Position numbers and translations under genes: made by a program. A stretch of DNA of 64,000 nt from Watersipora subatra (Eukaryota > Bryozoa > Gymnolaemata > Cheilostomatida > Watersiporidae), in contig NC_088708.1 of the NCBI RefSeq assembly GCF_963576615.1, positions 68,096,672 to 68,160,671 on the forward strand. Reading direction: 5' to 3'. The notes below the pieces were generated by a model. The model ran no database searches. It was given only the letters and a program-made list of their open reading frames with translations, and was not told the origin of the DNA. This document shows positions 39,190-63,533 of the stretch, in pieces. The first letter of the stretch is position 1. Every line of letters begins with the position of its first letter.

Positions 39190-39324
39190 TTCCCTCGATA
39201 ACCTACCACGTGACATTGAAAACTATCTTGCTATTGGACGTTACCGAGGTAATATACTTATTAGATAAACCCATTGGGTGAATATTTCGGTAATGACCTA
39301 CAAGAGTTTCCGGTTAAGTTTGCA
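39190..39324. promoter_or_regulatory. probable bidirectional promoter of Rab10 and DCTN2
   Basis: The short interval between the DCTN2 ATG and the inferred first Rab10 exon holds an E-box CACGTG at 39207-39212 and two reverse CCAAT boxes (ATTGG at 39233-39237 and 39273-39277). No TATA box is evident. Head-to-head spacing supports shared initiation. Confidence 0.45.
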
Positions 39325-40575
39325 ATGGCTGACCCGAAGTATCAAAATTTACGCTATATAGCGGTAGGACAAGCGGATGTGTACGAAACAGGAGATCTTC
39401 CTGAATCCGATCAAGCGTTTTACGAAACAGACGAACACCAGGGAACGGTCGAAACACTTTTAGTTGATCCTAAAGATGCTATTAAACGTTTTAATAAAGC
39501 GACAATAGACAGTAGTGGGTCAAACTTCAGTGAAGAAGCTGTTGCTGGCAGAAAAGGTTACTCAGTGCATTATGAAATTTTTCCATCTGCACACAAGGAC
39601 GAGGAAACAGTATTACAGAGAGTTCAGCGTTTAAAGTACGAATTGAAAGAAGTCCAAGAAGCTGCTGGCAAGATATGTGACGACGAGGTAAACCCCACTA
39701 CAATTTTAACGGAAGTAGAAGAGCTTCAACATCAACTAGAGCTGTTCAGTACACACTCATCGGCAGTAGGAAACAAACAGGATGAAAATTATGGTCAACT
39801 ATTAAACCAACTTAAAGCTGGAGCCCCAGCAAGGCAGAGTCCGAAGAAGAGTAGCCAACCTACAACGAGTCATGACACTGAGCCTAACAAGACGGTATTC
39901 GAGCTACATATGAGTAGTACACCGCATGCTGAAAAGGAGGCACATCTTGAGGCTCGAATTAGTCAATTGGAGATGCTGCTAGGTTCTGCTAGTGATCAAA
40001 AGATGTTAGCTGAAAGTGTTGGAACCAATTCTCTGATGGACACACTTCAGTTATTGTCTTCAAAGATGCATTTGTTGGATGAAGATAATGTGAATAAAGT
40101 TTCAGCTCGATTGCAAATTCTATTGCAAACAATGTCCAAGGTAAAGTTGCCCATCTTGAATCGTCTGCACTGCCCAACTTGTTTTATATACCAGTGAGTA
40201 AAACCAACTGTTTGTTTTCTGAAAAATTCAAATTTGATTGTCTGTAAACAGGTAAATGAAAGCAGTGCGACAGAAAATGCCCAGGATATGGAAAAGGTGA
40301 ATGAACTATACGAGTTGGTAAAGAAGTGGGATTCCTGCGCCGATGCCTTACCAACAATAGTGGATAGGCTCTATACATTGCAAGAACTACACCAGCAAGC
40401 TATGGAATTCTCATCTAGCCTGAAGGCATTAGAAGCAGCCCAGAGTGAATTGTCTGCGAGTATGGGTGCTCATGATAAACTCCTCGTTGATGTTCAAAAG
40501 ACTTTCTCTGACAATGTGGACACCATTAAGAGTAATGTAGAGAATATGGAGAAGAGAATTAGTGCTCTCAAATAA
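39325..40575 (+). CDS. DCTN2: dynactin subunit 2 (dynamitin, p50)
   Basis: Dynamitin is part of the dynactin shoulder, which couples the Arp1 filament to p150Glued and dynein. Exons are 39325-40140 and 40252-40575, joined over a 111-nt GT-AG intron in phase 0, giving 379 aa (human about 401-406). The N-terminus MADPKYQNLRYIA and the DVYETGDLPESDQA segment match the family's conserved start. Later landmarks are HYEIFP, RVQRLKYELKEVQE, a central coiled coil, LMDTLQLLSSKMHLLD and the C-terminal coiled coil with LYTLQELHQQAMEF. The frame is open 17 codons upstream of the chosen ATG, but MADPKY is the family start. Having a single intron is unusual next to neighbours with 5 to 13. Confidence 0.96.
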
Positions 40576-41238: not shown

Positions 41239-44200
41239 TTACTTCAAGTACCTGCAACAGACAAGCACACCATGTAAGCGATGAGTCTAAACAGGTGTGA
41301 GCAACTCGTAGCAAAGTGCAACCGAGTGTTAGCGTCATATATACTATTGGTGTCATCTATACTGTAGGTGTTGTATATAGTAATGTTGGTGCTGTATATA
41401 CTGTTAGTGCCGTATATACTGTAGGTGTCAGATATACTGTAGGTGTCATATATACTGGAAGTGTCACATATACCGTAGGCGTCACATATACTGTTGGTTT
41501 CACATATATTGTAGGTGTCACATATACTGTAAGTGCCACATAAACTGTAGGTGTCACATATACTGTAAGTGTCACATATACTGTAGGTGTCACATATACT
41601 GTAGGTGTCACATATACTGTAAGTGTGACATATACTGGAGGTGTCATATATACTGTAGGTGTCACATATACTGTAGGTGTCACATATACTGTTGGTGTAA
41701 AATATACTGTAGGTGCCACATATACTGTAGGTGTGACAGATACTATGAGTGTCACATACACTGTTGTAACTTACTTGGCAGCCCAGTCAGTTCTTCCGAC
41801 GGTCACCCCAGTCTTAGCACTTGGCTGCTGTCCAGAAATAGGAGCCAACTTGGCTGCCTTCCAAGGCTGTGTGTCTAAAATACAAAGTGCATTTAATTAC
41901 ACGCCAAACAAATCATAGCCAACAAGAATTCTGAGAACTCCAAGACATTTTCTTTATGATATTAGTAAAAATTCCCCTGTCATGCAGCCCACGACCAAAG
42001 TGATAATGGAAAAAAGAAAGGGTACTGATGGTTGAGAAATGCAATATTAGCAGTCAAATGGCACTGCAGTGCAATGGTAGCTGCAATGGTAGCTGTAATG
42101 TACTGGGTGATATTATGTACAACAAACAGCAATAATGAAAGGAAAAGATTATATGTTTATATCTCACCCTGCAATAGGAGAAATGCAATATTAGAAGTAA
42201 AATGGAAAGCTGCTGTGTAATATACACAGACTGGGGGGGGGGGGCTGTATATCATTGGTCATAGCAACCAATATCAAGAGGTTGTGATATTTATCTAGAT
42301 TTCTGTATTTATATCTAAAGAATTATGCTGAATTTAAAAATCTAAACAGATTTTAACTTGTTATCATAGAAATAGATGTATATCTATAAGAAAATGGAGG
42401 ACTATTACTTAATTTTGCAGATATTAAAAACGGCTTGGCAGTACCGCGATATTGGGCACAGCCGCAGTATCATCAACAAAATCTTTAAAAAATAATAACA
42501 GTAACATATTGCACACCATTGGTCACTATATACTTCGATCTTGTAAATTCGAATGATTATTCTTATAACTAAATCTTATAAAATTGAATAATCATTCTTA
42601 CAATTAAATATTGTAATAATTTTACAGGTAATATTGTAAGAATCGTTAGAAAAATATCATCGTCATTTCGTTTACTTTCACTGCTTTGGACATCAGTTGG
42701 AATACTAAAGTACTCGTTATAAGTGTCCAAAATGTCAGAGACCCGTAGAATCAGCAAAAAAGAAACGATAACTTTTCAGTACTTTTACGTTAATTACAGA
42801 AACCTTCGGCAATTAGACAATGCTATAGACTGGTGAAATGTGCACGTTTTTCTGGTGAAATGCGCACGACTTAATAGTTCTACTATTTGTCGCACGGCCT
42901 TATTGACGTTTCGTTGGCCAGTCTTAATTTTGATTAGAAAAAGCTTGTCAAGTTTTTATTGCGATTTTTGGCCAAATTAATCTGTCTATTTATGTATAAT
43001 CCGATCAGATGGGCTAGTTTTAGGGTCTTGCGGTAACCTTTCAAAGACTTGGTAACATATTTAAATAGGTTTATATGTGTTTTGTATCGTTATTATATTT
43101 AAACGACTCTACACAAAAATGGTCAAATTTGTTGATGAGATTCCAGTACAAGGGTTTGCGACGGCCGTTAATGAATAATTTTCGGGAGTTGTGTGCACAT
43201 GTGCATTTATCATAAATCTCCCAACCAATCGCTTCGCTCGTGTTTGGTCGTGGGATTATACTTGCCATAGACTTACCTGTGCTACCGAAGGAGATATGTA
43301 TACTTTTTCAAGTATTATTCACAAGCCTTGAGGATTAATTTTTGAGGCTTTCATATCAAAATTTGCTAGATCGCTGAATATATACATGTACTACCCTCAT
43401 GCACTTTCAAAGGAAAAAGGATCAGTACCTTCTCTCCAATTTTATATTTCAAGCTCTTCAGGTGGCTAGTAAAGCGTGCCTAAATTTAGCACTTGAAGTT
43501 ATACACAAGTTAATCATTTCTTGTCACGATTGGCATCGAGGATTGTCAGAAAGTTGACCTGGTCTGGTCACATACTTCATTTTCGGAAATGCGGCATCTA
43601 ATCAAGGTCAGCATTTAAGGAGTCTATGTTTGTAATATTGTAAGTAACATGAAATAAGTTTCATTTATGGCTGACACATCTCACTCAGTAAAAGGTGGAG
43701 ACTTCTAATAACAGTGAATATCTGACTGACAGTTCATTTTCTCAATATTAAGTTTTTGAAAACTGAGTGTTTCAAAAATAGATGGCGGAACGCTTGCCCA
43801 TTTGAAACTGAAAATATTAAAAAAATTTTACACAAGTTTCGGCCATTGTTATTGCTTTAATCTGGTAGAGCTGCTAAAAACTATCGCTGCGTTGATGATA
43901 ACACGAGTCACAACTTTGATTTACGACTCCTAAGTACAAAAGTATCATTAATAAAGGGTGACAGCGTCATGTTCCACCTTGGTACATGCAAATAAGTATT
44001 TGCAAGAGTACCTCATCGACTTACTAGATGGCTTCTTGGCAGAGCCCATGAATGAGGAGACGTATCCTGCATTGTTGATGTTATTAATTTTAGCAGCTGG
44101 CTTGCCAAGGGTGATACCGGGAAGAGCTTGACCTTTGCCAAACGACGAGTTCCAATCACCGCCGTCTTTGGATTGCTTTGAGTTTATTCCTGCGATAGAC

Positions 44201-47200
44201 AATTACCCGTAGCTTCAGGGAGTAACAATTTGTTAAATAATTTCGTTATTCCAAGCTTATGAATGGCCAACAATGCTTTGAATAGAAACAGAGAAGTTCC
44301 TATGGTGACATAACGAGTTAGTTTTAGAATCAGAGTTAGTTAGACAGGAATCGTAATCACTATTAGAGTTTAATTGGAATACAAATTGCTAAATTTAAAT
44401 ATTTGAGTAAAATGATCGTTAAATTTCAGTTTTCAAGGTGTACTTTCTACCTTACTATAGATTATTAATTTCGCTTTCACAACTTGAAAGCGAGTCAAGG
44501 AATACTTACCAGGCATGTACCTAGCCTTATTCATGTAATGCTGCTTGGCAGAAGAGGCCGAAGAGCGTCCTGATGTGATAGAGCTACGACGATGTGAAGC
44601 ACCAAACATATTCTTATTGTTAAAGGATGGCTTGGTTGCACCACCGAAAGAACTGAAAAAAGAGAAAGCAACTCACCGAAAGGTCGAGCGACGCATCGCG
44701 GCGTTTGACAAATTATACACTTTGAGCAGCTGCAGTTTGGTAGGCTAGAATTGTTTGGTATGCTGAAGGAGTGCAGTTGGTTAGAAGAAATAAAACAGCA
44801 TGGCAGCAAGTTAACTGCTTTGGTTAATTGGTGCCCCCTGGTGGCAGTTTTACCTGCAGGACAACAGATTAAAGAATCGTCTTGCGTATGCCAAGTCAGA
44901 AGATGTGAGTAAAAAGCACTCACATAGAGGAAAGTTGAAAAGCTAGTGATTGTTAGGATGTAACATAGCCATATGAATAAGTATTTTTTAAAGGTTTATT
45001 CTTGATTGGCAGCATGTTGATCAGCTCTAGTAATTTTATTGAACTATTAGAATTTTGTATTGAGCCCTTTCTAGCAAATATTTATTTGTTAGAAAAAGTT
45101 CTGGCAAAAGAGAAGATTGTAAAATTGCTACCGAAAAACTGATGTTTAAAAAATAAAGATCTTTGCCAGCATGCAACCATAGACTGTATACATATTTTCG
45201 CATTGTGTACGTTATATAATTTTGTTTTGCTCCAAAATACCTCATTCTGCTTTTTACGTTCTACGTGAATTCAGTTATGATGTTATGATCACTGATGATT
45301 ATACGAATATAATTATTGCTAGCGCTGGGCCTGAGGCAGATGCGTGACTTCAACACCAAGCGAGTGAAAGTATTGCTAGCGCTGGGCCTGAGGCAGATGC
45401 GTGACTTCAACACCAAGCGAGTGAAAGATGTTTAAAAGCTGATGTTTTGCTGTAAGTTACATTCAGAAACTAAAAAACAAAGTAGAAATTTAATTAATGA
45501 AAAGTGTACGCATAACACAATTACATGACACAAAAATGACAAATTTATATAGCATCTACTATTCTTGAATGTGCTAACAAACAGTTATTAGTATGTTTGT
45601 TAACAGATACGGTATCTTAGTTTTTGCAAATTGGGCGTAGTGAGAGGTAGAACAAGAAAAATTGAAAACTCACATGTTGCATGCCCATAATAATAACCAG
45701 CTTTGCAAAAACCAGGTTTATACAAGGTAAGAAACTAGTAATAATATGATGTGATTATAAATGCAGAGTTGACTACAAACCCTAGACTCTGAAAATGGCC
45801 ACCTTCGTCTTACTCACTTCAAAAAATCGTCATCATCAAAATCCACTTTCTTGTTCGCCGGGGCTGCCATTTTAGGTTTTGTTGCTGCCGTGCTTTTGCC
45901 AAAGTCATCGAGACCAAACTCATCCCAGTCATCCCAGCTATCTTGTGCACCCCACCTCTTACGGGGTGCAGCAGGGGGATTGTTTGACTTGGTGGCCGCT
46001 GGAGGCTGTAACAACCATAAGAGCGATAATTAGTGTTTCTAAGCTACCCTAACACAACTCTAAAGTAGTACTGCGACTTTAGCCTTCATTACGAGAGGAA
46101 AGAGCTGCCCGGGTCGGAAGACGACAGCTGCCATTGTTATAGCTGCTGCCAATACCAATCATGCTGACAGAATATTGAGCGTGTCAGCATCTCCAAAGAG
46201 TTTTCAACAACATTCATGAGCCTCTCAGGCCTTGAGCTACTAATGTTTGGCGTAATGACATAAAATTCACACCTCGTCAACATGTTAGTCAGCATATCCT
46301 CATGTCTGTTTACACATATTGCGACTTTTAGTCACTTGCTGTTCATGTTATCACATGTGATAGAATTTTTACAGTGACATCAAGCAAATATTGACACTTT
46401 CAATATAAAATCGCAGCCTCACAATGTCACACGACTCTGACATTACGACATTACTAAGCCAACAACACTGACATACACTTGAATGACCCTTTTACATGAA
46501 GGTCGACTAAATGTGTGACGAGAATGTAAGACGATGCTGGTTGAAATGCAAAGAGATTTTTAAATCAAAGTTAGCAGTCTCCAGAAAAACAATGCTTAAT
46601 ACAGCAAGAAAAAAAGACTCTGACCTATTGACCTATACAGCAAATTAGCTTTGTAGTTTTCTTGTACTTTTATCTAATGCCCAAACTAGCATCTGGTATG
46701 TTTAAGATCGACTCTACATCACTTGTACACAGAGGTTGTTTCATTTTTCACCAAAAGTTTATTTTAACGAACTGCGCCAACCAAATCCTTTTTGACTTCG
46801 CCACCTTAACGACAAACGTAAAATTTGTCAGACCAACTGAGCAGACAAATAATCACTCAAAACCGATAAGCACAGCACAGGCAGAACTGAAATAGAACGA
46901 AAGTGCTTTCAATTTGTATAGCCTTCAATCATGAGGTTCTAAAACAGGTGCTTGACGGCAGGCCCTTACAAGTGACCTCTGATAGTGTGTTCTTGCATTA
47001 CCTTACTGCCAGCAGCCTTGCTAGGCTTGCTAGCCTTAGCTACACTATCTGCTTTATTGTCTTTCATTTGGGCCGTAGTTATAGCACCAGGTACTTGATA
47101 CTGCAATAAGCAGATACCAGCTTTAGATAAACAACAAAGCCTTTTATTTGTGACTACGTAATGCTACCGAGACACGGTGCAAGTACAAATTGAGAGCAGG

Positions 47201-50200
47201 AACCTTTTTTCTATCAGCAAATGAATATGTTTGCAACATGAGGTGTATCTCGGCAGTGGTTGCAAAATATTTTATTGTAGGAAATCTAATATATGACTCA
47301 TTAAGCTTCTTGGCAGCTATCCGAAAATCCTTACTCTTCTTGGCAGCCATTCAAAGAACCTTTATAAATTCAAACAATGTATTCTTAATGACTTTTCTGT
47401 TTGTTTGTACTGAATTGTTTATTTTAAATGCTTCTCACACCTAGTGAACTTATGAACTTTTTGAAATTACAAACAAAGTTAAGAGAATAGCTGTACAACA
47501 GCCTCATCACGTATCATTAACGTAGCTAGTCACCGCCTAGCAAAAACCTTCCTCCTACTTTAGAAATCAAAAAAGCAAAAAGAAGCATTCACCTTATATG
47601 TTTCATATTCCATATGAGGTTTTTTCTCAGGAACGATAGATGGCAAATCCATTTTGTTCTGCTGCTTGGTTGTGTCCGCAAAGGGCTGCCGTACTGGCTG
47701 AGTTTGCTTCAAAGCGGGCGCGAGAGATGTGTTGGAAGGCTTAGCACCAAGATTCTGGCCCACTGTGAAATAGGGACTTTTCAGTATCTGCAAAATAAGG
47801 TTACTGATATCAGATAGGCATGAAGACATTAGCTATGAACGAGACAGCACTATGAGACTGTTTTAGTGGAGCGATGTGAATGTATGACAGTGTTTGGCAT
47901 GACAAATATTTTGTCTGAACGAAAGATTCGTGTTTTGCGATGAAGCATTTGATTCTCATGTACAACATCATTGCATCACTTCCTCTGCGTGTCACAAGCT
48001 TAATGTACTACTTGCCTAATGTGTCACATTTCTAATAATTTTGGTACTAGTTTAATGTGTAGGTTCTCCAAAGTGCCACTGGCTGAATGTGTCACCATCG
48101 AAGTATATTTTTTGATGAGTTAGATACTTTCACAGGGATACTTCTCTGACGTGACAAGACGCACTGGAAGAAATCGAGGCGGTACATGAAATTGTAACAA
48201 GTAGGAAGTTGTACCTGTGCGGCAGTAGGCCTCTTCTTAGGATCCCACATCATGGTCTCTTTCATTAGCTGGATGGCCTCATTACCGGCATTCGGTATCA
48301 ACGTTCGTAGGTTTGTTTCTATACACTGAGGCCATCTGAAGTTCATAGCTGCGGCTAGCTGGTGGCCCTCTGGCCAAGTTTGCTGTAGCAACAGAGAAGT
48401 TATCATATCTTTCAGAACCAGTTGTAGATGAGATTTGAAAGTGACAGGAGGGGGCTACAGTTTGTGGTCATTTTATTAAGATGGTATTCAACCTCGAGAA
48501 GAGCACGATAATACTGTACATTAGCAGCTTTTTACATTTCAACAAACTAATTTAGTAATTTTTGGTACAGAAGTTGAACAGCCTTTTTTTAGAACTTTTC
48601 CAAGGTTCAATATTATTATTAGTAATAAATAAAAATCATAGATAGTGTGTTACAGAAATGTGAGAGCATTATGTAAGCTCATGAAATGACTTGAGCCAGA
48701 CATACTTGAGAAACTTAAAAGTTCAAGTGTTTACTTACTATATAATAACTTAGAACACACAAAGAAGCTGGGTACTTTAGGCTCTCAACAAATTGATCCA
48801 AGATTATATGAAAATAAGAGGGTAAATTAGGTCAAATAGAGCACAGTGGCGAGTTGACTGGTAGCAGACCATATAATAGTCATTCGCATTATACCAATGC
48901 TATTTATAGATTAATTGTCTTGTAAGTTAGGTGCAAAGACTATATATATATATATATTTGAAAAATTATTGTGAAAAAAGTAAACTTTTAGTATTTGCGT
49001 TACAAATTTGTTTCGTGCGGAGCACTCATCAGACGCGATTGTACTAAAATGAAAAGCTTTACCGAATTCGCATTATATATTAACTAAAAGCAAGTGCTAA
49101 AGCACTTGCTTTTAGTTAATATATATATATATATGTATATAATGATCAATAACCTTTGAGTTGTTTACTGCAATCGAAGACTACCGAGATTATACCGAGA
49201 ATTCTCATGTACGAATGTACATATATACATGTACGAATATACATATCTAGTTTTTTAAATATTTTCGGATAAAACCAGTTAGTCTATAAGTGAAGTTCAG
49301 AAAATAAAATATGTAATTTAGCTTCACGATGTCACATCTAAGAATAGCTTGTAGTTTTTAAAGATATGCTTAGACTTTCAGTGGTCCTACCTTGGCAGGT
49401 GTTCCAAGTACTGAGCATATTTTAAACAGTTGATCTATCTCACTGCTGCCGGGGAAGAGAGGCCTAAGTGTGTATAACTCCGCCATTATGGTGCCAACAG
49501 CCCAAATATCTATGGGGGAGTTGTAGTTGGTAGAACGTAGAAGAATTTCAGGAGCCCGATACCTGTGGCGACAAAGGTGACGGTCATACGTGAACTAATC
49601 AAGACGAATAATTACAAAGAAAATTAAAAAAACATAAAATATAATTCACTATTACAAGGCAAGTTAACAACAGCCTTCAATTAATATTCCACTCACAAAA
49701 ACATAGTAAAAGTATTCTTTAGTTTCAGTTAAACAGCCATAAATAATATAATTATATCATTATTTGTGTGTCACAAGAGCCACCACTGATGATAGAACTG
49801 AATATAATAGGTTGGGTTGTGAGATGGCTGCTAACGAATATCACTAGCGCTGTTAGTAGGCAATGTTAGTTAGTGCAGTTAGATTAGTGAGGAAGGTTGG
49901 TTACAAACCATCGGGTTGACACGTAGTCTGTGAATGGAGGCTTTGATCTTATCTCACGAGCTAAACCAAAATCTGCTAATTTGACATTGTCAGGCCCGCC
50001 GCAAAGCAGGTTCTCAGGCTTCAAGTCGCGGTGGAAATAGCCTGGCAAAAAGCAAGAGAGGATAATTGTTAGAATGAGTAGTGCCTGGCTAATTAAAGCC
50101 TGAGTGCAACAGAAATAAAGGTGGGTTAAGGGAATGCCCCGACATAGAAGAGCTCAGCCATATATGGTTAAAACACTATTCACAATGAAATAATTAGATA

Positions 50201-52573
50201 ATGCATGTGTGTTAAGCTTTTTTCCATGGAAGGGGCATTCACACTTCTATATTGTTAGCATAGTCATGGATTAGCCTGGCATCAAGACAAGCCCAGTCTC
50301 TTGACGAACCATCGAGTTGACACATAGTCTGTGAAGGGAGGCCGAGAGCGAACCTCCCGAGCCAACCCGAAATCTGCTAATTTCACGCATTGTACTCCGT
50401 CACACAGCAAGTTCTCAGGTTTTAAATCCCTGTGGAAAAATCCTGCAACAAGTATGGAGCACTCGAACTGCTGTAGAGCATGTGTACCCTGGTATACTTA
50501 CTATTGCATTGTTTGTATTTCTTAATATACTCTGTGCATCTTAGTTGTAGTCTAATCGGGGCATGAAACAAAAATTATAAAAAATGAAATAATTCAACTA
50601 TAAGTTCCTGGGTATAAGGGGTTCCTGTGGAGCCTAAAGCTAGACTGTTATGATAAGAGTTGATATATAGTGACACCATACTGAATATGATACTATATAA
50701 TAATCCATACCATTCTTGTGCATGAAAGCAAGACCCTGCATTACTTGATAGATGACATTCCTCACGGATGATTCCGGAAAGAGCTTATCTCTATAGAACA
50801 AAAGATTCATCTTAATAGATGGTACAAACACAAAAGTAATCAGAGATGCCACTGTTTCAGACATTTCACTCCAGTCAGTCTTATTTTGATTACTGTCAGA
50901 TAACCCTCGATAACGACTAGACCATCTTCAGCTACTATCCGACCAGCATGGAAGAGCCATGTAAATGCCGATTCAATTTATATCTTTGCGAAAACACATA
51001 AAGCACAATTTTTATGAAGCTAGTCGAAGTAACGTTTGCAAGGAGTTTGTTTCAAGCTGAACACAATCAAGTAAATCGACATTTCGTGTGACAAACACCA
51101 TTGGAAACAGAGAATCTTGGGAATAGATCTAGCCCTCAGATCAATTGGTCCCCGGTTTGTCTATAAATGGTTGAATAAAGTGATGCAACGTTGAAGAAAA
51201 ATGAGTCATTACAAAGAGAAACATACCTGTCCTTCATCATCTGATACAGATTCTCTTTCATGAACTCGAAGACAAAATAGAGGTTGTCATTTTCTCTGAT
51301 CACTTCTTTGAGTTTGACTATGTTGGCATGGTTCAGCTTCCTCAGGGACTGTCCAACAAAAACATAGAAAAGGTTCATATATTGTCAACTCTATGCGGTA
51401 TTCCCATCTGGCATGACTGGGCCTGCATAATGGCATCAATAGAGGCAAACAACTCATGCCTAAATACAATACAGATCAGTTGTGGCAACTTTATGTTTAT
51501 TTGGTCAATAGTTCATAATAGAGCGCATCAACATCAATAAAGCTGCTGCTTTCATGTAGCGATGGCATGCTGCAAATGCTATTATTCCTATATGGATTTG
51601 ATTTACCTATTGTATTACACATACAATGTGCATCATATTCCATGCTGTGTGAAAAATATTACATCAGCGATGAGCATATTGAATATTTTAGCGAGCTACT
51701 AGCCTGCTGTCAACGTCAGCAAACTTTGATTCTTGTGTTGTCGATTCTTCAGCATGCCGCCATCCAGCAAAATCAGAGTCGTTATTAGCAAAAGATAATA
51801 CAATATTATTCTTCAGCCTGATTAAGTGCAGAGAGCATCGCCCGCATTTATTGGTAATGACACTGACTTCAGTCATTATAGCTAGCTGCCGGACTCAATC
51901 AAACTGGCAGAATGGATAACTTATGAAGTTAAACAAAAGGTTAGTACAAACACCGAGACTCATGGAAGGCTGTTCACTTCATCGATTGGAACGACATGAA
52001 AGCGAAACATCTTCCCAACAATAATAACAAAACTATGCGAGCACCTGCTACCAGACCCTAGTGCATCAACACTAACCTGCTCACATTATCACACGCAACA
52101 GGTTGTATAGAGTGTCATTGACATAATGCCACCACACTCTAACAAAACTGTCTACATGTCCCATAGATGACACAGAGAGACAGGTTACTATCGAACATAA
52201 ATTACACTCCATGTTAGGTATACATCACAAGTTTTGTGCATGTTATCACTCACCTTGACTTCTCGTAGGTTGAGGCACTCGTCCCATGAGTAATATTTCT
52301 TTTTCATGCTGAAAATCAACAAAGGAATCAAATTTATCACAAAGAAAATTTTTTTTACAAAAAAATAGGAGTTGCCATGTATGACCGGCTTATCTACATT
52401 TAGTAGTTTATGCTTAGTGTCAATAAGCAGTTAGACAAGAATATCTCATGACCAACTAAAGCTGATACCAACCGTTTTATGGCGACCTTTTCATTAGATT
52501 CAAGGTTGACAGCCAAAAGGACGTTGCCATAGGTACCGTCCCCAAGCTGCTTAGACACATTATATCGATTCAT
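41239..52573 (-). CDS. CILK1: MAK/CILK1 (ICK)-type ciliary serine/threonine kinase
   Basis: An RCK-family kinase controlling ciliary length and intraflagellar transport. Exons on the minus strand are 52573-52473, 52308-52254, 51348-51227, 50790-50711, then either 50442-50310 or 50041-49909, then 49562-49391, 48382-48215, 47787-47593, 47100-47002, 46005-45818, 44652-44510, 44189-44025, 41874-41775 and 41251-41239. This gives 577 aa (human about 632). It has [20 protein letters not shown], Lys33 in VAIK, Asp125 in [11 protein letters not shown] at 143-145 and T157-D-Y159. RCK tail motifs follow: [37 protein letters not shown] and GRTDWAAKY. The last exon encodes only YLK after a split codon; it is supported by a good acceptor and the conserved DW..KY ending. 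Introns at 46006-47001 and 48383-49390 hold no other coding sequence. Confidence 0.95.
41328..41770 (-). repeat. 18-bp minisatellite, about 24 copies, in the last CILK1 intron
   Basis: The unit GTGTCACATATACTGTAG is repeated from next to the exon 13 donor (41774). Eighteen is a multiple of 3, so both strands carry long open frames of six-residue repeats (VYVTPT on the minus strand, VGVTYT on the plus strand). These are a by-product of the array. The minus-strand frame is in phase with the TAA inside the donor. Confidence 0.9.
41968..43255 (+). mobile_element. 1.26-kb dispersed repeat, copy B (CILK1 intron 12)
   Basis: This is the direct-orientation relative of copy A at 32003-33264, with the same near-terminal CCCACGACCAAA and TTTGGTCGTGGG. 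It is slightly longer owing to small indels. The remaining intron sequence, 43256-44024, shows nothing recognised. Confidence 0.7.
45314..45427 (+). repeat. perfect 57-bp tandem duplication with protein-like content
   Basis: Two identical copies, 45314-45370 and 45371-45427, lie in CILK1 intron 10. On the plus strand both read [18 protein letters not shown] in one open frame. Base composition is richer in GC than the surrounding intron, as in an exon. It is antisense to CILK1. I do not recognise the peptide. Confidence 0.7.
48997..49036 (-). ncRNA. type I hammerhead ribozyme in CILK1 intron 6
   Basis: Read on the minus strand from 49036: stem I GCGT, core CTGATGA, stem II GTGC-TCC-GCAC (four perfect pairs, 3-nt loop), core GAAA, stem III CAAATTTG (self-complementary), TA completing a GTA cleavage triplet, and stem I ACGC pairing with GCGT. 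All invariant core bases are present. The very short stem III is typical of hammerheads in Penelope-like elements and animal retrozymes, which tend to act as dimers. It is in the sense of CILK1 transcription. Confidence 0.8.
49073..49130. repeat. perfect palindrome, 25-bp arms, 2-nt spacer
   Basis: The arm ATTAACTAAAAGCAAGTGCT is followed by AA and its exact reverse complement, extended on both sides by TA steps. It lies about 40 nt upstream of the hammerhead in transcript sense and may belong to the same element. Confidence 0.85.
49909..50041 (-). CDS. CILK1 alternative exon 5b (catalytic and activation loop)
   Basis: This 133-nt exon is flanked by TTGCCAG| and |GTTTGT. It encodes [13 protein letters not shown], then GGPDN, then [18 protein letters not shown] and TDYVSTR. 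It is closer to vertebrate CILK1 (GPELVK, EIRSKPP) than its twin, so it is probably the ancestral version. Confidence 0.85.
50310..50442 (-). CDS. CILK1 alternative exon 5a (catalytic and activation loop)
   Basis: This 133-nt exon is flanked by GTTGCAG| and |GTTCGT and lies 268 nt upstream of exon 5b. It has the same phases (2 nt in, 2 nt out). It encodes [13 protein letters not shown], then DGVQC, then [18 protein letters not shown] and TDYVSTR. Seven of 43 residues differ from 5b. HRD, DFG and TDY are intact in both. Including both or neither would shift the frame. Confidence 0.85.
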
Positions 52574-55580: not shown

Positions 55581-58500
55581 CTATAGTTGGCTAGCGGACG
55601 TGTGGTAAACAGAGTTAGCGAACACGTAAGCTCGATTCTCCCGCCAGTCTGCTAGGTTTTTACGCCCTTTCGTCACCAACTCACTCCTAACATTGTCTTG
55701 GTAGTCCGAAAAGTTTGCAGGCAGCTCTTTTGATCCTCCGAGCGTTATAATCCAGCGATGGCACAAGAGATCTATAGCTGTAAATCGTACTTTCTTATCG
55801 ACGACCAGCAGATGGCTAATAAGGTCTTTGGCCTCTAAAAACACAAACAGTTTATCGACAGAGGTTAATATGCGGTATCAGGTAGCTGACTGCATTGAAC
55901 TCGTCCTATAAGCCAGCGCATTGAGCAGCGGTTGAGCTTGTATAAAGTTTCAAACCTTTTGAGAACACTTTTAAGGATTATTTTTACTTTTTACGATGAA
56001 AAAAATCTTAAATATCAAGAAACAGACTTCACCTTGGAAAATCATCAGATCTGAGTTCAAAACTTGAAACTTCAAACAAGTGAGAAACACGCTACTAGCT
56101 AACTATCATTACAGTGATAAAAAGATAAGTTTGCTTAAAAATGAAAACTGAACAATCTAACAAAGATCATTTGCCAATTTCAGGCCTAAAGCAGAAATAA
56201 GTCACTCTGTCCGACTACTAACAATAGCTACAGCCATAAACTACTCTGCTCTACTACTATAACCAATTACCCAAATATAGGTTCACTATTGTGTGACGGC
56301 TGTTTGTTCATGACATAAGCTAAGCCTCATTTACTACGAATTTTGTTTAGCAAAAATTTGGGACCTTGATACGTTATTAAATTGCCCTCTAATTTGATAA
56401 ATCCATAGCAATTTTATACCTCGTGGATGGAAATAGAAAGTCATCAAGTAGATGCTTAATATGTACATCTACACATATTACATGTATACACACATCTGCA
56501 CATACCATACATATATCTACACACATCTGCACATACCATACATATATCTACACACATCTACACATACCATACATATATCTACACACATCTACACATACCA
56601 CACGTATATCTACACACATCTACACATATTGCACGTAAGTACACTTACGATAGGCATAATTTTAGACATCAGAAAAAACATTAGCAGCCTTGCCGTAGCA
56701 GCAAATCTAAGTTCAGGTTTTATTGGTTAGTAACATAGAGCCTATCACAAATGATACCTGACCGAGGCTAAGTTACCTTATAAAATGACTATGTTGGTGC
56801 AGGCCAAAACCTAACCAGGACTTACAACAATTTTTTCTTACCTACTGACACGTGGTCCCAGTATGGGCTGAGGAACTCATACTCTCCCGCTTTTATGTAC
56901 TCAAACAGCTCTGTCTGGTTGTTATCGGATGATCGAAAAGGAGGAAATCCACAGAGAAAGATGTAAGTGATGATGCCAACAGCCCACATATCCACCTCCA
57001 GTCCATAACCTAACGATTGGTAACATACCGCATGACTATCAGGAAATAGCCCGTAATACCACTAGTTTATATATATATAGCCTAAAAAGGCCTGAGTAAA
57101 ACTAAAGCGAACGAGATGAAAGGCTATTGTAGCGATTTTCAAATCGTCCTTAAAAACCACCACCAAGCAATTAAATCGCCATATTGTGAAGCTCTACTCA
57201 AACTTTTGCATATGGACTCGTCTCTTCCTCTTTCGTCATTAGCTGGTTTTCGTATTTGTTAGATACCTAAGTAAAACCTAACAAACAAATACATCTGAAA
57301 AATCACATCTACATGTAGGGAAGTAACCGCCTCTTCTATGGGGAGGAACCGTCTCTCAAAGTTGGCAAGTCGTGCTATTTAAAATGCCAGAAATAAATAC
57401 AATAATGATAGCAGATAAAGTGAAGCTTCAAAAAGTCTTCTAAAACACTTATTAATAGAATAAAGTTTCCCAATTCAAAAAATAAAACCAGGCAATGACA
57501 GAATTAAAGATTTATATCTTACGCAGGCATAGATTGCTATGAATGATTTGAATTAGTCATCTATGACTTCAATTGTACTATGGCCACGATCTAAAGAGTA
57601 AAGTGCAATGAGAAACCCTGGTTAGACACAGTGTGCTGTCTATGTCTGTAGTTGTTACTATGGTTGCTGTCTAAAGGTTGTACCTATCTCGGAAAGGATC
57701 TCAGGTGCAACGTATGTAGGAGTGCCACAGATCGTGAATATCGGTACCTTCACCTCCACAGCCAGACCGAAGTCGCCTAACTTGAGAGAAATGGAGTCGT
57801 CTTTATTTCTCATCACCTGCATCAATTGAATAAGAATTAAAGTGAACAGCGCTAACCCGTTGTCTACCTAGCGGAGGCTGGCTCCATATGCTACACAGAA
57901 AACTTGAGCTAAACGACTAGTTCTGCTATGAAAAGTGAGATGCTGTTAATGACATATTAAAACATTAATACAGTATTTTTGATAAGCAAAGCTTAATTTG
58001 ATAGACCACTGTGTGAAGATGCAAAAATTTTTATTTTTAATGATGGGTAAACTTGATATTCGTAAAGACGATATTCCTCATGTCATGTTCAAGACATGGT
58101 TCCTCATGATATAAACAATTTTAACGGAAATCTCAGCCCCGGTGAGATTACTCAAACAGGAACAAGATGAAACACAGGTAATTATTTCCAGAGGGAATGC
58201 CAGGTGATCTTTATCGCGAGCAATAAATAAACCATACCTAATCTACTGTTATGTCAGTTTGATGAGTTGTTCTCTCCTGCCTCTTATAATGTAATCTCAT
58301 TCAGTAAGTAGCAAACCTCTGGTTACTCTAATAGCTTATCTTCAATCAACAAAAGCTGAATAACGAAATCGAGTAAAGACAACTCCGGAAGGTTTTACCT
58401 AAACGCAGCATGTGGCACCAGAATAAATGTGCACTCACCATAACATTCTCAGGCTTGAGATCTCGATGCACAATGCCTCGACTGTGCAGGTAAAACAGAG

Positions 58501-61500
58501 CGTTGGTCATATCAGTGGTCATCTGCGAGGCAACTGGCTCTGTAAATCTCACACTGTTTTTAATGGCGTCAAAAAGGTCTCCACCCTGTAATACAGAGCA
58601 TCGAGCAGCTTTAAGAGGCTGTGAAACAGGGTTATGAGCAGCACTTACGATGTATTTGACCAGCGAAGCCACTTTCATCGTGAAAATACAACCAATACGT
58701 TTCAGCCAAAATTTGAAAGTGATTCAATTTTATTTAGCCTTCACTAACCCATGGACACCATCACTTTTTGAAATGTACTTTTTTATTGGACCAACTGAAA
58801 AAAATTTGGTTTTCCAACTGCTACCTGAAGAAATCCAGAGGATAACCATAGCAACAGCCAGTAAACCTGGCTTAAAGGTTGACTTGCAACAAAATTCACA
58901 TTACAGTTATTTGGTATCAAAATATTCACCATGTCTTACTCTGTTGTGATGTAGGTGCCAAATATGTGGAAATGTGATTACATGGTCTTAAAAGCTCACA
59001 AACGAAAAGCCGCCTTAGATTGGAATCTCTTTATTTCGATGACGTAGCCATGAAAATTGGTTATTGTCTTGTCATATGATGTTCTCACGTGAATTGAAAG
59101 GCCAATAAAAAGCTTGATATAAAACTTATCGTATCACTAGTTTATGACAAACACTTTGGGTTTTACCGAAGACCCCGTATCAAATATAGATGCTCGCTAC
59201 TTTACAGTTTTGTTTCGGTTTGGTCTAATCGGCAAGTCGTAATCTAATCATGTGACTCAATACTTAGCAAATAATTTTTGCAGCACTTTTCGATTATCAC
59301 AAGTGACCAACAGGCTCGTCATGATCATCAGACAATGATATGTACTCCTTCAAGCTAAGGCTAAAAAATTAAACGAATTTTTACGGTAAGTTATAAGATA
59401 TCACTGCTAAAAGTGACAGCATTACGATGACGATAAAACAGACGCGTAAGAACAATAAACATGGTTTTGTTGAATGCGTGAAGCATATTTGTGAAAATAT
59501 TTCGACGAATAAGGTTGCATGAAAGTGTAAACAGAAACCATCCCTCACAACTACGTCACATTTGAGCCGTTTTGGACAGAGAATCAAAACTACGGCTGTC
59601 TCGTGTGGCTGCGATTTTCTGTTCGTTTTTTAGCTTTTGTAATCATCTTTCCACATATTTTGCACTTACAACACAGCAGAGTAAGACATGGTGAATCTTT
59701 TCATATCAAATAACTGTAATGTGAATTTTGTTGCAAGTCAACCTTTAAGAAACCTTTCATTCGATGGTAAAAACAGCAGGGGTTTTATAATAATTTGTTG
59801 ATAGCAAATAACAGTTTTCAACATTAAATACTTGTTAACCCCATTCGTTTGGATGCTAACAACTTTTTCAAGAAAAGATTTGTAGATGCAGTATAGATAC
59901 AAGGTTTTTGACTGTTAGAGTCAGCGGCGCTGTCGAACTCCTCCAAACACAACAAGCCTGGCAACATATTCAAGTGATTCGTTGAACCTACGAAGCTAAC
60001 AATTGTGTTTCTACAGAATCAATAACTAATTATCTGACACACGGTATGTTCATCCTTTCAACCTGCCACGGGCGCGTCTCGTATTCTAATAATCAATCTG
60101 AGATTACGCCATAAACCTGAGGCTATTTACTGGGACGGCAGTCGGTATTAAATACATATTTACACTGATATGATAGTGGCTTAATTTTTACCAATTTAAG
60201 CGTGTGCTCTGCTAAGTCTGAGCAAATCAATGTGTGAGCCTCAAATTATTTCCACTACTTATGTGAGCCAGTCAAACCAGGGTTTCTCAGTGCACTTTAC
60301 TCTTCAGACAGCAACCATAGTAACAACTACAGACATAGACAGCACACTGTGTCTACCCAGGGTTTTTTATTGCACTTTACTCTTCAGACAGCTACCATAG
60401 TAACAACTACAGACATAGACAGCACACTGTGTCTAAACAGGGTTTCTCATTGCACTTTACTCTTCAGACAGCTACCATAGTAACAACTACAGACATAGAC
60501 AGCACACTGTGTCTAACCAGGGTTTTTTATTGCACTTTACTCTTCAGACAGCTACCATAGTAACAACTACAGACATAGACAGCACACTGTGTCTACCCAG
60601 GGTTTTTTATTGCACTTTACTCTTCAGACAGCTACCATAGTAACAACTACAGACATAGACAGCACACTGTGTCTAACCAGGGTTTCTCATAGCACTTTAC
60701 TCCTTAGACAATAACCATAGTAACAATTACAGACATAGACAGCACACTGTCTACCCAGGGTTTTTTATTGCACTTTACTCTTCAGACAGTAACCATAGTA
60801 ACAACTACAAACATAGACAGCACACAGCATAGAGTGTCTAAACAGGGTTTCTCATTGCACTTTACTCTTCAGACAGCTACCATAGTAACAACTACAGACA
60901 TAGACAGCACACTGTGTCTAACCAGGGTTTCTCATTGGACTTTACTCCTTAGACAATAACCATAGTAACAACTACAGACATAGACAGCACACTGTGTCTA
61001 ACCAGGGTTTCTCATGGGACTTTACTCCTAAGACAGTAACCATAGTAACAACTACAGACATAGACAGCACACTGTGTCTACCCAGGGTTTTTTATTGCAC
61101 TTTACTCTTCAGACAGCTACCATAGTAACAACTACAGACATAGACAGCACACTGTGTCTAACCAGGGTTTCTCAGTGCACTTTACTCTTCAGACAGTAAC
61201 CATAGTAACAACTACAGACATAGACAGCACACTGTGTCTAACCAGGGTTTCTCATTGCACTTTACTCTTTAGATCGTGGCCATAGTACAATTGAAGTCAT
61301 AGACGACTAATTCAAATCATTCATAGCAATCTATGCCTACATAACATATAAATCTTTAATGCTGCCATTGCCTGGTTTTATTTTTTGAATTGAAAAACTT
61401 TATTCTATTAATAAGTGTTTTAGAAAACTTTTTGAAGCTTCGCTTGATCTGCTATCATTATTGTATTTATTCCTGGCATTTTAAATGGCACGACTTGCCA

Positions 61501-63533
61501 ACTTTGAGAGACGGTTCCTTCCCATAGAAGAGGCGGTTCCTTCCCTACACATAGATGCGATTTTTCAGATGTATTTGTTTGTTAGTGTTTACTTAGGTAT
61601 CTAAGAAATACGAAAAATCAGTTAATGACGAAAGAGGAAGAGACGAGTCCATATGAAAAAGTTTGAGTAGAGCTTCACAATATGGCGATTTAATTGCTTG
61701 GTGGTGGTTTTGAAGGACGATTTGAATATCGCTAACATTTAAAGAAATATCCCCAATCGTATAAACGATATAATTGTGTAATGACAATTTCTCTCACACC
61801 TGACGATTTTCAGAGTGAGTGATACTGGAACTAAAATACACGGACCTTCTAGTCATATAATAAGCTTATTCCATGGCCTTACTAGGCACACGGGCATCCA
61901 TGAAATAAATGTTTCTAATTATTATGAACAGAGAACAGCTTCTTTTTGAGTTAAAATATACAAAAAAACGAAAAAAATAATTTACAAGTTTTTTACATAA
62001 TACAGTAGGCGCTCCTACATAAATAATTTGTTCCAGGAACGTCTACATTATAGGGATATAAAAACAGTAAAATACTTGTAAATTGTCTAATCCGTTCCGA
62101 GATTTTTCCAAACTCACTCCTTTCGGCATACAAAAAGGAAAAACTTTAACTTTTTGAATTTGTGATCTGTACAGTAGCTGCAGCAATATTAGTTTGCATC
62201 AACGACTTTTCTCCTTTTTATGATCAATCTCACTGGTTTAATAGACCATGATTGTGGTAACTTTACAATAAGTTGATGTAGAGCGTACACCTTCGATCCT
62301 CAGTTACAATGATTTGCTTATTTTTTCTAAATAGTCAAGTCTACTCTTGCAAAGTAAAACGTGAAAGTAAAATAATTCAAAAAAAGTGGTACTACCTGTT
62401 CGTCATCTATCTGTATCCAGGAGTCAATATTAGGATAAAAGAATACATAAACGATACTCTAACTCATGACATTTGGATTAGTGGATCGACGATGTAACAC
62501 CTGCACCAATCGATTGCCTTTGTATTTATGAACAATTGCGCAGCTTTTCTATTCTCCGTTTTGTTGACACTTCTGACGATCTATCGCGATGAACTAGATT
62601 GTTGCAAAAGTTGTATATATAACAAATATAATGCTACACGCATGTCATTTTTTCTTTTGCAAGTACGGCAAGGTAAATTAACGTCCAAATCAAAATTGAG
62701 AACTCACTTGTCTTGACACTTTACGTTATATGGAATTTTGACGTAGTAGGAAGCAAAAACTTCACACAAACTCCTTACGTTATCTGGAATTTATGTAATA
62801 GGAAGTATACATTATAGGAGCATCTAGCGTAATAATATCACGACATCGCGAATCATATACATGTACATGTATTTGCAATATCGAAACATCTGATGATTTT
62901 TGGAAATTGTGAAGCTCTAGGTTTAAGTGCCTTGATAAGTATGTACCTCAAGTATATGTTTAAGCACCTTGATAAGCAAGTACCTCAAGTATATGTTTAA
63001 GTACCTTGATAAGCAAGTACCTCAAGTATATGTTTAAGTACCTTGATAAGCAAGTACCTCAAGTATATGTTTAAGTACCTCAATAAGTGCCTTAAGTGTA
63101 AGTACCTTGATATGTAAGTACCTCAAGTATATGTTTAAGTACCTTGATAAGTGCCTCAAGTGTAAGTACCTTGATAAGTAAGTACCTCGAGTATAAGTTG
63201 AAGTATCTTGATAAGTACTTTGAGTATACGTTTAAGTATGTTGATAAGTACTTCAAGTATATGTTTAAGTACCTTGATGTACTCGAGCACCAGGTAGATG
63301 TGCTCCCGAGTTTCAAACTCATCATAGAGCTGCACGAGGTTCTCCTGGTCACACGCCTTCATGATAGCGATTTCATTCTCTATCATGTGCTCTTTGCCTT
63401 TCAGCTTTGTCTTGTCTATGATCTTCATGGCATACCGGTGCCCCGTATCACGGTGCTGGCAAGCATTGACCACTGCGAAGTTGCCATCTCCTAATGTTGA
63501 ACCGATGTCAAATTTCTCCTTAATCTCATCGGC
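55581..63533 (-). CDS. DCLK: doublecortin-like kinase (DCLK), kinase domain and C-terminus; 5' exons outside window
   Basis: A CaMK-superfamily kinase related to DCLK1-3, which join microtubule-binding doublecortin domains to a kinase. Exons on the minus strand are 63533-63273, 58585-58439, 57816-57684, 57009-56842 and 55834-55581 (320 residues plus stop, phases closing). Visible are the glycine loop GDGNFAVV, Lys in YAMKIIDK, the alpha-C Glu in [30 protein letters not shown] in [24 protein letters not shown], the [25 protein letters not shown] block and [16 protein letters not shown] and GGDLFDAI are diagnostic for DCLK against other CaM kinases. A 48-residue C-terminal tail ends in SASQL. 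The acceptor before 63533 shows that coding continues to the right, so doublecortin domains cannot be judged. Intron 63272-58586 is filled with repeats. Confidence 0.92.
56485..56640. repeat. 31-bp minisatellite, 5 copies (DCLK intron)
   Basis: The unit CACATCTGCACATACCATAC-ATATATCTACA is repeated with a period of 31 (starts near 56491, 56522, 56553, 56584, 56615). Open frames across it are histidine- and threonine-rich by-products. Confidence 0.85.
57131..57680 (-). repeat. left arm of a ~550-bp inverted repeat, abutting a DCLK donor
   Basis: It is the inverted copy of about 61180-61733. It starts 3 nt after the exon 57816-57684 donor GT and includes one unit of the 79-bp repeat found as an array at 60.3-61.3 kb, plus about 470 bp that follows the array there. 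The arms differ by scattered substitutions. Confidence 0.85.
58872..59748. mobile_element. foldback element with ~140-bp terminal inverted repeats
   Basis: Both ends read TTAAAGGTTGACTTGCAACA in inverted orientation and continue through ATTCACATTACAG and GGTATCAAAA. TTAA at both ends could be a target duplication or part of the element. A partial relative sits at 33291-33480. It lies in the large DCLK intron. No coding sequence was recognised. Confidence 0.75.
60276..61260 (+). repeat. 79-bp minisatellite, 13 copies (DCLK intron)
   Basis: The unit begins CAGGGTTTCTCATTGCACTT and ends GACAGCACACTGTGTCTAAC. Two recurrent versions alternate (AGGGTTTCTCAT and AGGGTTTTTTAT). The last unit and the following ~470 bp form the right arm of the inverted repeat paired with 57131-57680. 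Confidence 0.95.
61180..61733 (+). repeat. right arm of the ~550-bp inverted repeat
   Basis: It matches 57131-57680 in reverse, including TTGCCTGGTTTTATTTTTTG and GACTTGCCAACTTTGAGAGA. About 3.5 kb separates the arms, with one DCLK exon (58585-58439) between them. Confidence 0.85.
62003..62830. mobile_element. TA-flanked MITE, copy 2 of the GCTCCTA family
   Basis: The left end CAGTAGGCGCTCCTACATAA follows TA. The right end reads as an inverted GATGCTCCTATAATGTATAC but its last bases are altered. It shares internal stretches (CTTTTCTCCTTTTTATGATC-like, CACTGGTTTA) with 24743-25625, in inverted relation. Confidence 0.65.
62921..63285 (-). repeat. 37-bp minisatellite built from a DCLK splice-donor junction
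   Basis: About ten units of AAGTACCTTGATAAGCAAGT-ACCTCAAGTATATGTTT (some 27 or 33 bp) run up to the exon end at 63273. In gene sense most units contain ATCAAG|GTACTT, the exact exon-intron junction of exon 63533-63273. The true exon unit is the last one in the array. Confidence 0.9.

What the first reader, a model, noticed from the sequence alone, without database searches (positions are those of the whole stretch)
49909..50442. Mutually exclusive catalytic-loop exons in a MAK/CILK1 kinase
Seen: two 133-nt exons in tandem, same phases, both with HRD, DFG and TDY intact, differing at 7 of 43 residues, mainly D134/G, V136/P, Q137/D and C138/N. Skipping or double inclusion shifts the frame. Both donors are weak (GTTCGT, GTTTGT). 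I know of no description of this for the family. Inference: the gene makes two kinases that differ near the catalytic and activation loops.
Basis: partly seen in the sequence, partly recalled or inferred. Interest (0 to 1): 0.85.

Follow-up and report, generated by a model that had tools for sequence, protein, structure and literature searches.

The report
Twin alternative exons in cilia kinase
A bryozoan cilia-kinase gene carries two old, intact versions of the exon that encodes its catalytic core, so by reading one or the other it can probably make two kinases that differ mostly in one small surface loop; this still needs RNA proof.

Summary
A MAK/CILK1-type kinase gene on the minus strand has two tandem 133-nt exons (5B 50310-50442, 5A 49909-50041) with the same phases and with HRD, DFG and TDY intact. 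They differ at 35 of 133 nt but only 7 of 44 residues; dN 0.11-0.15, dS 1.0-2.4, so both copies have long been held under protein-level selection. Skipping both or joining both gives an early stop. Exon 6 is single copy and no third copy of the twin was found: an exon duplication within one gene. The genome matches Watersipora subatra (Bryozoa) by size. Mutually exclusive splicing is the best reading, but no RNA was available. Four of the 7 changes cluster in the beta7-beta8 turn, which in MAP kinases lines a docking groove; altered docking is the best functional guess, mere tolerance the main rival. It resembles JNK exons 6a/6b in kind but lies elsewhere in the domain. New member of a known kind; age and spread untested.

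The parts
50310..50442 (-). exon 5B (upstream twin), 133 nt, phase 1 in / phase 2 out; loop CDGVQC
   Evidence: query
49909..50041 (-). exon 5A (downstream twin), 133 nt, same phases; loop CGGPDN
   Evidence: 84% to 5B
50042..50309 (-). intron between the twins, 268 nt; branch-like CTAAC 27 nt before the 5A acceptor, 241 nt from the 5B donor; 11 other branch-like consensus matches
50443..50710 (-). intron before 5B, 268 nt; no convincing homology to the other introns
49563..49908 (-). intron after 5A, 346 nt
52473..52573 (-). exon 1 (start codon, glycine loop, VAIK)
52254..52308 (-). exon 2
51227..51348 (-). exon 3
50711..50790 (-). exon 4, ends in phase 1 before the twins
49391..49562 (-). 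exon 6 (YRAPE...), single copy in the genome search
48215..48382 (-). exon 7
47593..47787 (-). exon 8, end of kinase domain and start of tail
41774..46029 (-). probable tail exons: open stretches at 46029-45817, 44672-44436, 44202-43951 and 41896-41774 (last with GRTDWAAK, then either a stop or a GTAAGT donor); exact borders not settled
   Evidence: likeness to MAK/CILK1 tails recalled

Best explanation
One MAK/CILK1-type kinase gene carries an old tandem duplication of its fifth coding exon, and exactly one twin goes into each productive mRNA. Shown by sequence: two intact twins in the same phase, both under strong protein-level selection, and frames that make skipping or double inclusion destroy the protein inside the kinase domain. 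Inferred: regulated choice of one twin, with the wrong combinations cleared by nonsense-mediated decay. Also inferred: the isoforms are both active kinases whose main difference is the beta7-beta8 turn (GGPDN in A, DGVQC in B). In MAP kinases that turn forms part of the docking groove, so the most likely effect is on which partner or substrate binds, not on catalysis. The docking step is the least certain: I put it near 0.4 given that the twins are spliced this way.
For: Same length, phases and motifs. 35 nt but 7 residue differences; dN 0.11-0.15, dS 1.03-2.37 over four estimators. Drift test: 0 of 20,000 runs from each copy. Frame logic. Exon 6 is single copy (100%, next of 36 matches 63%); of 10 places matching the twin exon only two reach 84%, the third being a MOK-like exon at 59% (label recalled). 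Both isoforms score alike on Pkinase (A 249.2, B 251.4 bits). The turn of isoform A aligns without gaps to the same turn in CDK3. In MAPKs the hydrophobic docking groove lies between helices alphaD-alphaE and the beta7-beta8 reverse turn (passage of PMC4861982). MXE-specific residues are generally surface-exposed and near functional sites (abstract and passages of PMC7954323).
Against: No RNA, no relatives' genomes: exclusive use, both isoforms' expression and conservation are untested. Both donors score low. If the free copy took only 17 of the changes, 295 and 360 of 20,000 drift runs gave 7 or fewer residue changes, so that milder model is unlikely (1.5-1.8%) but not excluded by this test alone. 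The changed turn may simply be a tolerant place; the MOK-like and protist kinases differ there too, so relaxed constraint explains the cluster equally well. No clear steric, U2/U12 or RNA-pairing device that would enforce exclusivity was found. A MAPK-type docking groove has not been shown for MAK/CILK1 here.
Confidence: 0.8

Rival explanations
1. Both twins are used one at a time, but the protein difference is neutral; selection acts only to keep each a working kinase exon, and any benefit lies in regulation.
For: HRD, DFG, TDY identical; 3 of the 7 changes are mild (F/Y, V/I, R/K); the turn is variable in related kinases; both isoforms fit the Pkinase profile alike.
Against: Four changes in five residues, two of them losing Pro or gaining Cys, cluster in a window scan (p 0.035), which is modest.
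Confidence: 0.35
2. One twin is the coding exon and the other is mainly a poison exon: double inclusion or skipping is used to lower kinase output by nonsense-mediated decay.
For: Both wrong combinations give early stops, 122 and 108 nt before the end of their exon and with further exons after it; weak donors would allow leakage.
Against: A poison exon need not keep a kinase reading frame with dN/dS near 0.06-0.15, which the pair shows.
Confidence: 0.06
3. One twin is a dead relic of an exon duplication.
For: Low-scoring donors; no RNA evidence; the milder drift model is passed by 295 and 360 of 20,000 runs.
Against: No stop, no frameshift, splice sites kept, strong excess of silent change; 0 of 20,000 fully neutral runs from either copy.
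Confidence: 0.04
4. Assembly or haplotype artefact: two alleles placed in tandem.
For: The species' assembly is from one individual and was not fully phased, though one haplotype was deposited (abstract, passage of PMC12902671).
Against: The twins differ at 35 of 133 sites and global alignments of the three introns are no better than shuffles (68, 93 and 168 of 300 as high), far beyond allelic difference; exon 6 is not doubled.
Confidence: 0.01

Closest known systems
JNK1/JNK2 (MAPK8/MAPK9) alternative exons 6a/6b
   Same: CMGC kinase; alternative exons inside the kinase domain changing only 5-7 residues, with altered substrate binding (passages of PMC8699841, and PMC10887252).
   Different: JNK's pair lies between subdomains IX and X; here the pair spans the catalytic loop to the activation segment. 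The bryozoan's own JNK-like gene showed no second copy of that region in the one search made (15 matches).
MAPK14 (p38alpha) homologous exons
   Same: Homologous alternative exons in a CMGC kinase, listed with a structure for each form, one of them from salmon (passages of PMC4465641).
   Different: A different part of the domain (recalled) and a different kinase family.
FYN exons giving FynB/FynT
   Same: Mutually exclusive tandem duplicated exons inside a kinase (passage of PMC9741552).
   Different: Tyrosine kinase; exons cover the linker and ATP-site region.
MAK and CILK1 (ICK) of vertebrates
   Same: Kinase core, TDY motif and tail motifs (likeness recalled; no animal MAK sequence was in the collections used).
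   Different: No mutually exclusive catalytic exon pair seen in what my searches showed; known MAK splicing is a retina-specific exon outside the kinase domain (recalled).

Membership tests
Homologous mutually exclusive exons (criteria of PMC3228551, passages) | about the same length | tested here: met
   133 and 133 nt
Homologous mutually exclusive exons (criteria of PMC3228551, passages) | conserved splice-site pattern and reading frame | tested here: met
   AG/GT, phase 1 to phase 2 for both
Homologous mutually exclusive exons (criteria of PMC3228551, passages) | sequence similarity, internal and neighbouring | tested here: met
   37 of 44 residues identical; between exons 4 and 6
Homologous mutually exclusive exons | each transcript holds exactly one of the two | not testable with these tools
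   no RNA; frame logic only
Mutual exclusion by steric hindrance | donor to branch point under about 50 nt (PMC5740500, passage) | tested here: inconclusive
   12 branch-like matches by consensus only; the one fitting best lies 27 nt before the acceptor, 241 nt from the 5B donor; 2 of 12 lie 28 and 39 nt from the donor, but 9 and 8 AGs stand between them and the acceptor, which speaks against their use
Mutual exclusion by U2/U12 incompatibility | one U12-type intron | tested here: not met
   donors GTATGG, GTTCGT, GTTTGT are not U12-like by inspection; U12 consensus recalled
Mutual exclusion by competing RNA pairing | docker and selector pairing beyond chance | tested here: inconclusive
   intron duplexes within shuffle range, 26, 27 and 39 of 100 shuffles as strong; one genome only
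MAK/CILK1 (RCK) kinases | protein kinase domain with TDY activation motif | tested here: met
   Pkinase 249.2 and 251.4 bits; FTDYVSTRW in both twins; TDY as family mark recalled
MAK/CILK1 (RCK) kinases | placement with MAK/CILK1 rather than MOK in a tree | not tested
   a separate MOK-like exon exists (L011; label recalled); no animal MAK sequences at hand, and the best 60 of 2736 solved-structure matches hold none named MAK, CILK1 or MOK
JNK-type exon 6a/6b switch | pair lies between subdomains IX and X | tested here: not met
   twins run from HRD to TDY/STRW, subdomains VIb-VIII (subdomain names recalled)

The most novel reading that the evidence does not exclude
Bryozoan MAK/CILK1 is a switchable ciliary kinase: exon choice swaps the beta7-beta8 docking turn, giving two kinases with different partners, perhaps one for each kind of cilium on the tentacle crown, a convergent invention of the JNK exon-6 trick in a different part of the fold.
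Probability: 0.25. Interest if true: 0.75.

Novelty: new member of a known kind. Interest (0 to 1): 0.5.

Why it matters
MAK/CILK1 kinases set cilium length and intraflagellar transport turnaround (recalled). A single gene that makes two versions differing in one small loop is a natural loop-swap experiment: it would show which part of this kinase reads its ciliary partners, in an animal group whose feeding depends on several kinds of cilia (recalled).

Tried and rejected
Alleles or misassembly: rejected on divergence and single-copy exon 6. A second gene copy: rejected, of 10 matching places only the two twins reach 84% (the search scores best candidates only). Weak donors as the hallmark: rejected as unspecific; of the other GTs listed within 45 nt of each twin donor (4 for B, 3 for A) none scores better. 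Competing RNA pairing: not above shuffles; a whole-region fold gave nothing usable. A distant branch point near the 5B donor, as in OGDH (abstract of PMC7969005 in the listing): sites exist but 8-9 AGs follow them, so not favoured. Equal 268-nt introns as traces of the duplication unit: local score 25 against 18.6 +/- 2.4, 2 of 200 simple shuffles as high, but the global test with dinucleotide shuffles gave 68 of 300, so not taken as homology. Gene conversion of the exon ends: silent changes 2 of 8 against 17 of 29, p 0.12, not shown. Orthologues for dating: none of an animal found. The scan of prokaryote genomes gave 18 loci; of the 3 opened, L019 looks like a eukaryotic contaminant with a MAK-like kinase, and L020 and L021 look like bacterial-type kinases; the other 15 were not opened. 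No scan of viral contigs was made. Which twin is ancestral: A 30 and B 29 of 45 to L019, A 27 and B 26 of 45 columns to the MOK-like exon, undecided. COX1 search found nothing, as expected if the mitochondrion was left out. Rfam found nothing in the window. No structure prediction was run, since spliced proteins are not contiguous in the window.

Full report
What is there. On the minus strand the window holds a MAK/CILK1-type kinase gene. Its kinase domain is spread over exons 1 to 8 (52573 down to 47593), and probable tail exons run to at least 41774, where a GRTDWAAK motif is followed by either a stop or a GTAAGT donor (the likeness of core and tail to vertebrate MAK/CILK1 is recalled). Between exons 4 and 6 lie two tandem 133-nt exons, 5B (50310-50442) and 5A (49909-50041), with the same phases (1 in, 2 out) and with HRD, DFG and TDY intact. 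They differ at 35 of 133 nt and at 7 of 44 residues: F/Y121, D/G134, V/P136, Q/D137, C/N138, V/I150, R/K153 in B/A order.

Is it more than chance. Four estimators give dN 0.11-0.15 and dS 1.03-2.37; the spread of dS shows that silent sites are near saturation, so the estimate is rough. Letting one copy drift freely to 35 differences never gave as few as 7 residue changes, 0 of 20,000 runs from each copy. In a milder model where only 17 of the changes fall on the free copy, 295 and 360 of 20,000 runs did. Both exons have most likely been kept as protein-coding for a long time. Exon 6 occurs once (100%, next of 36 matches 63%), and a genome search with 5B gave 10 places, of which only the two twins reach 84%, the third being a MOK-like exon at 59% (MOK label recalled). 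So this is an exon duplication inside one gene.

Which animal. The window's genome (783,720,542 bases in 239 contigs; C1 79,350,317, C3 75,923,518, C4 67,125,504 and C7 66,307,180 bases) matches the published assembly of the bryozoan Watersipora subatra: span 783.70 Mb (783,752,486 bp in a figure legend), 240 scaffolds, chromosomes 1, 3, 4 and 7 of 79.35, 75.93, 67.13 and 66.31 Mb (passages of PMC12902671; taxonomy). Only 4 of 11 chromosome lengths were at hand; C3 is off by 0.01 Mb and the totals differ by about 32 kb, part of which would be the 14-kb mitochondrion. The identity is inferred from sizes, not from a sequence comparison.

How it most likely works. Either exon alone keeps the frame. 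Skipping both puts a stop in exon 6, and joining both puts a stop in 5A, in each case inside the kinase domain and before the last exons of the eight-exon model. Decay of such mRNAs is expected from general knowledge, not shown. The branch-like site that fits best for 5A lies 27 nt before its acceptor and 241 nt from the 5B donor; two of 12 consensus matches lie 28 and 39 nt from the donor, but 9 and 8 AGs follow them before the acceptor, so a steric block is unlikely though not excluded. The donors are not U12-like (consensus recalled). Pairing between the introns is no stronger than in shuffles (26, 27 and 39 of 100 as strong). The choice is thus probably made by splicing factors, with the frame as backstop. 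[quoted passage not shown] The twin donors are the two lowest of nine scored, but exons 1 and 7 are almost as low (matrix recalled), so donor weakness says little.

What the two versions would do. Both isoforms fit the Pkinase profile alike (249.2 and 251.4 bits). Four of the 7 changes fall in five residues, 134-138. A scan over all 5-residue windows gives p 0.035; the Fisher test on that window gives 0.0012 but the window was chosen after seeing the data. The stretch of isoform A aligns without gaps to the turn between the catalytic and DFG segments of CDK3 (with one residue missing elsewhere in the query), the beta7-beta8 turn. In MAP kinases the hydrophobic docking groove lies between helices alphaD-alphaE and this turn (passage of PMC4861982). 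Docking is therefore the best guess. Against it: the turn also differs in the MOK-like and protist kinases, so mere tolerance explains the cluster too, and no docking groove of this kind was shown for MAK/CILK1 in anything I read.

Comparison with what is known. JNK1 and JNK2 have alternative exons 6a/6b that change 5-7 residues and alter substrate binding (passages of PMC8699841 and PMC10887252); p38alpha and FYN are further kinase cases (passages of PMC4465641 and PMC9741552). The bryozoan pair is of the same kind but lies in a different part of the domain. The bryozoan's JNK-like gene showed one copy of the JNK exon-6 region among 15 matches, so nothing suggests a shared origin. In the library searched I saw no report of such a pair in MAK, CILK1 or ICK. 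The searches were 2 papers; 2; 25,923 papers, 15 listed; a poor query, since 'mak' also matches 'make'; 22, 15 listed; 48, 10 listed; 5. Most of these papers were seen as listings only, and supplementary gene lists could not be read.

Verdict. Real, and most likely a true pair of mutually exclusive exons; the use of both and the effect are not shown. It is a new member of a known kind, worth a quick look at existing RNA reads.

Noticed in passing
39265-40572 (+): Dynamitin (dynactin subunit 2) reading frames lie beyond the 3' end of the MAK-type gene, on the other strand; Dynamitin 135.6 bits for 39265-40191.
   Followed up: partly
58349-63533 (-): A second protein kinase gene in pieces upstream of the MAK-type gene, DCLK-like by recall (Pkinase 67.7 bits for 63162-63533 and 52.7 bits for 58349-58723).
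   Followed up: partly
11606-11938 and 13736-14074 (+): Exons of a cyclic-nucleotide phosphodiesterase (PDEase_I, 60.3 and 67.2 bits).
   Followed up: partly
7251-7508 and 16087-16344 (+): Two copies of one stretch, 96.5% alike in translation over 86 residues, on both sides of the phosphodiesterase exons; perhaps a recent partial duplication.
   Followed up: no
60271-61273: An 80-bp minisatellite, 12.5 copies at 90% match, within the stretch of the second kinase gene.
   Followed up: no
41334-41764: An 18-bp repeat, 23.8 copies, directly after the GRTDWAAK stretch of the MAK-type gene, open in long frames on both strands; intron or region beyond the gene.
   Followed up: no
49075-49098 and 49101-49124: A perfect 24-bp inverted repeat with a 2-bp spacer beside TA repeats, in the intron after exon 6; looks like a small mobile element or hairpin.
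   Followed up: partly
50042-50309 and 50443-50710: The introns on both sides of exon 5B are both exactly 268 nt, with no convincing homology; probably coincidence.
   Followed up: yes
G000 C5, about 21.7-26.8 Mb: 8 of the 36 matches to the exon 6 peptide lie in this stretch of chromosome 5, a sign of a local family of kinase genes or pseudogenes.
   Followed up: no
L019 (JAGOVS010000236.1): A contig filed under a Bacteriovorax MAG carries a MAK-like kinase in two open pieces and other reading frames that look eukaryotic; likely eukaryotic contamination of the bin.
   Followed up: partly
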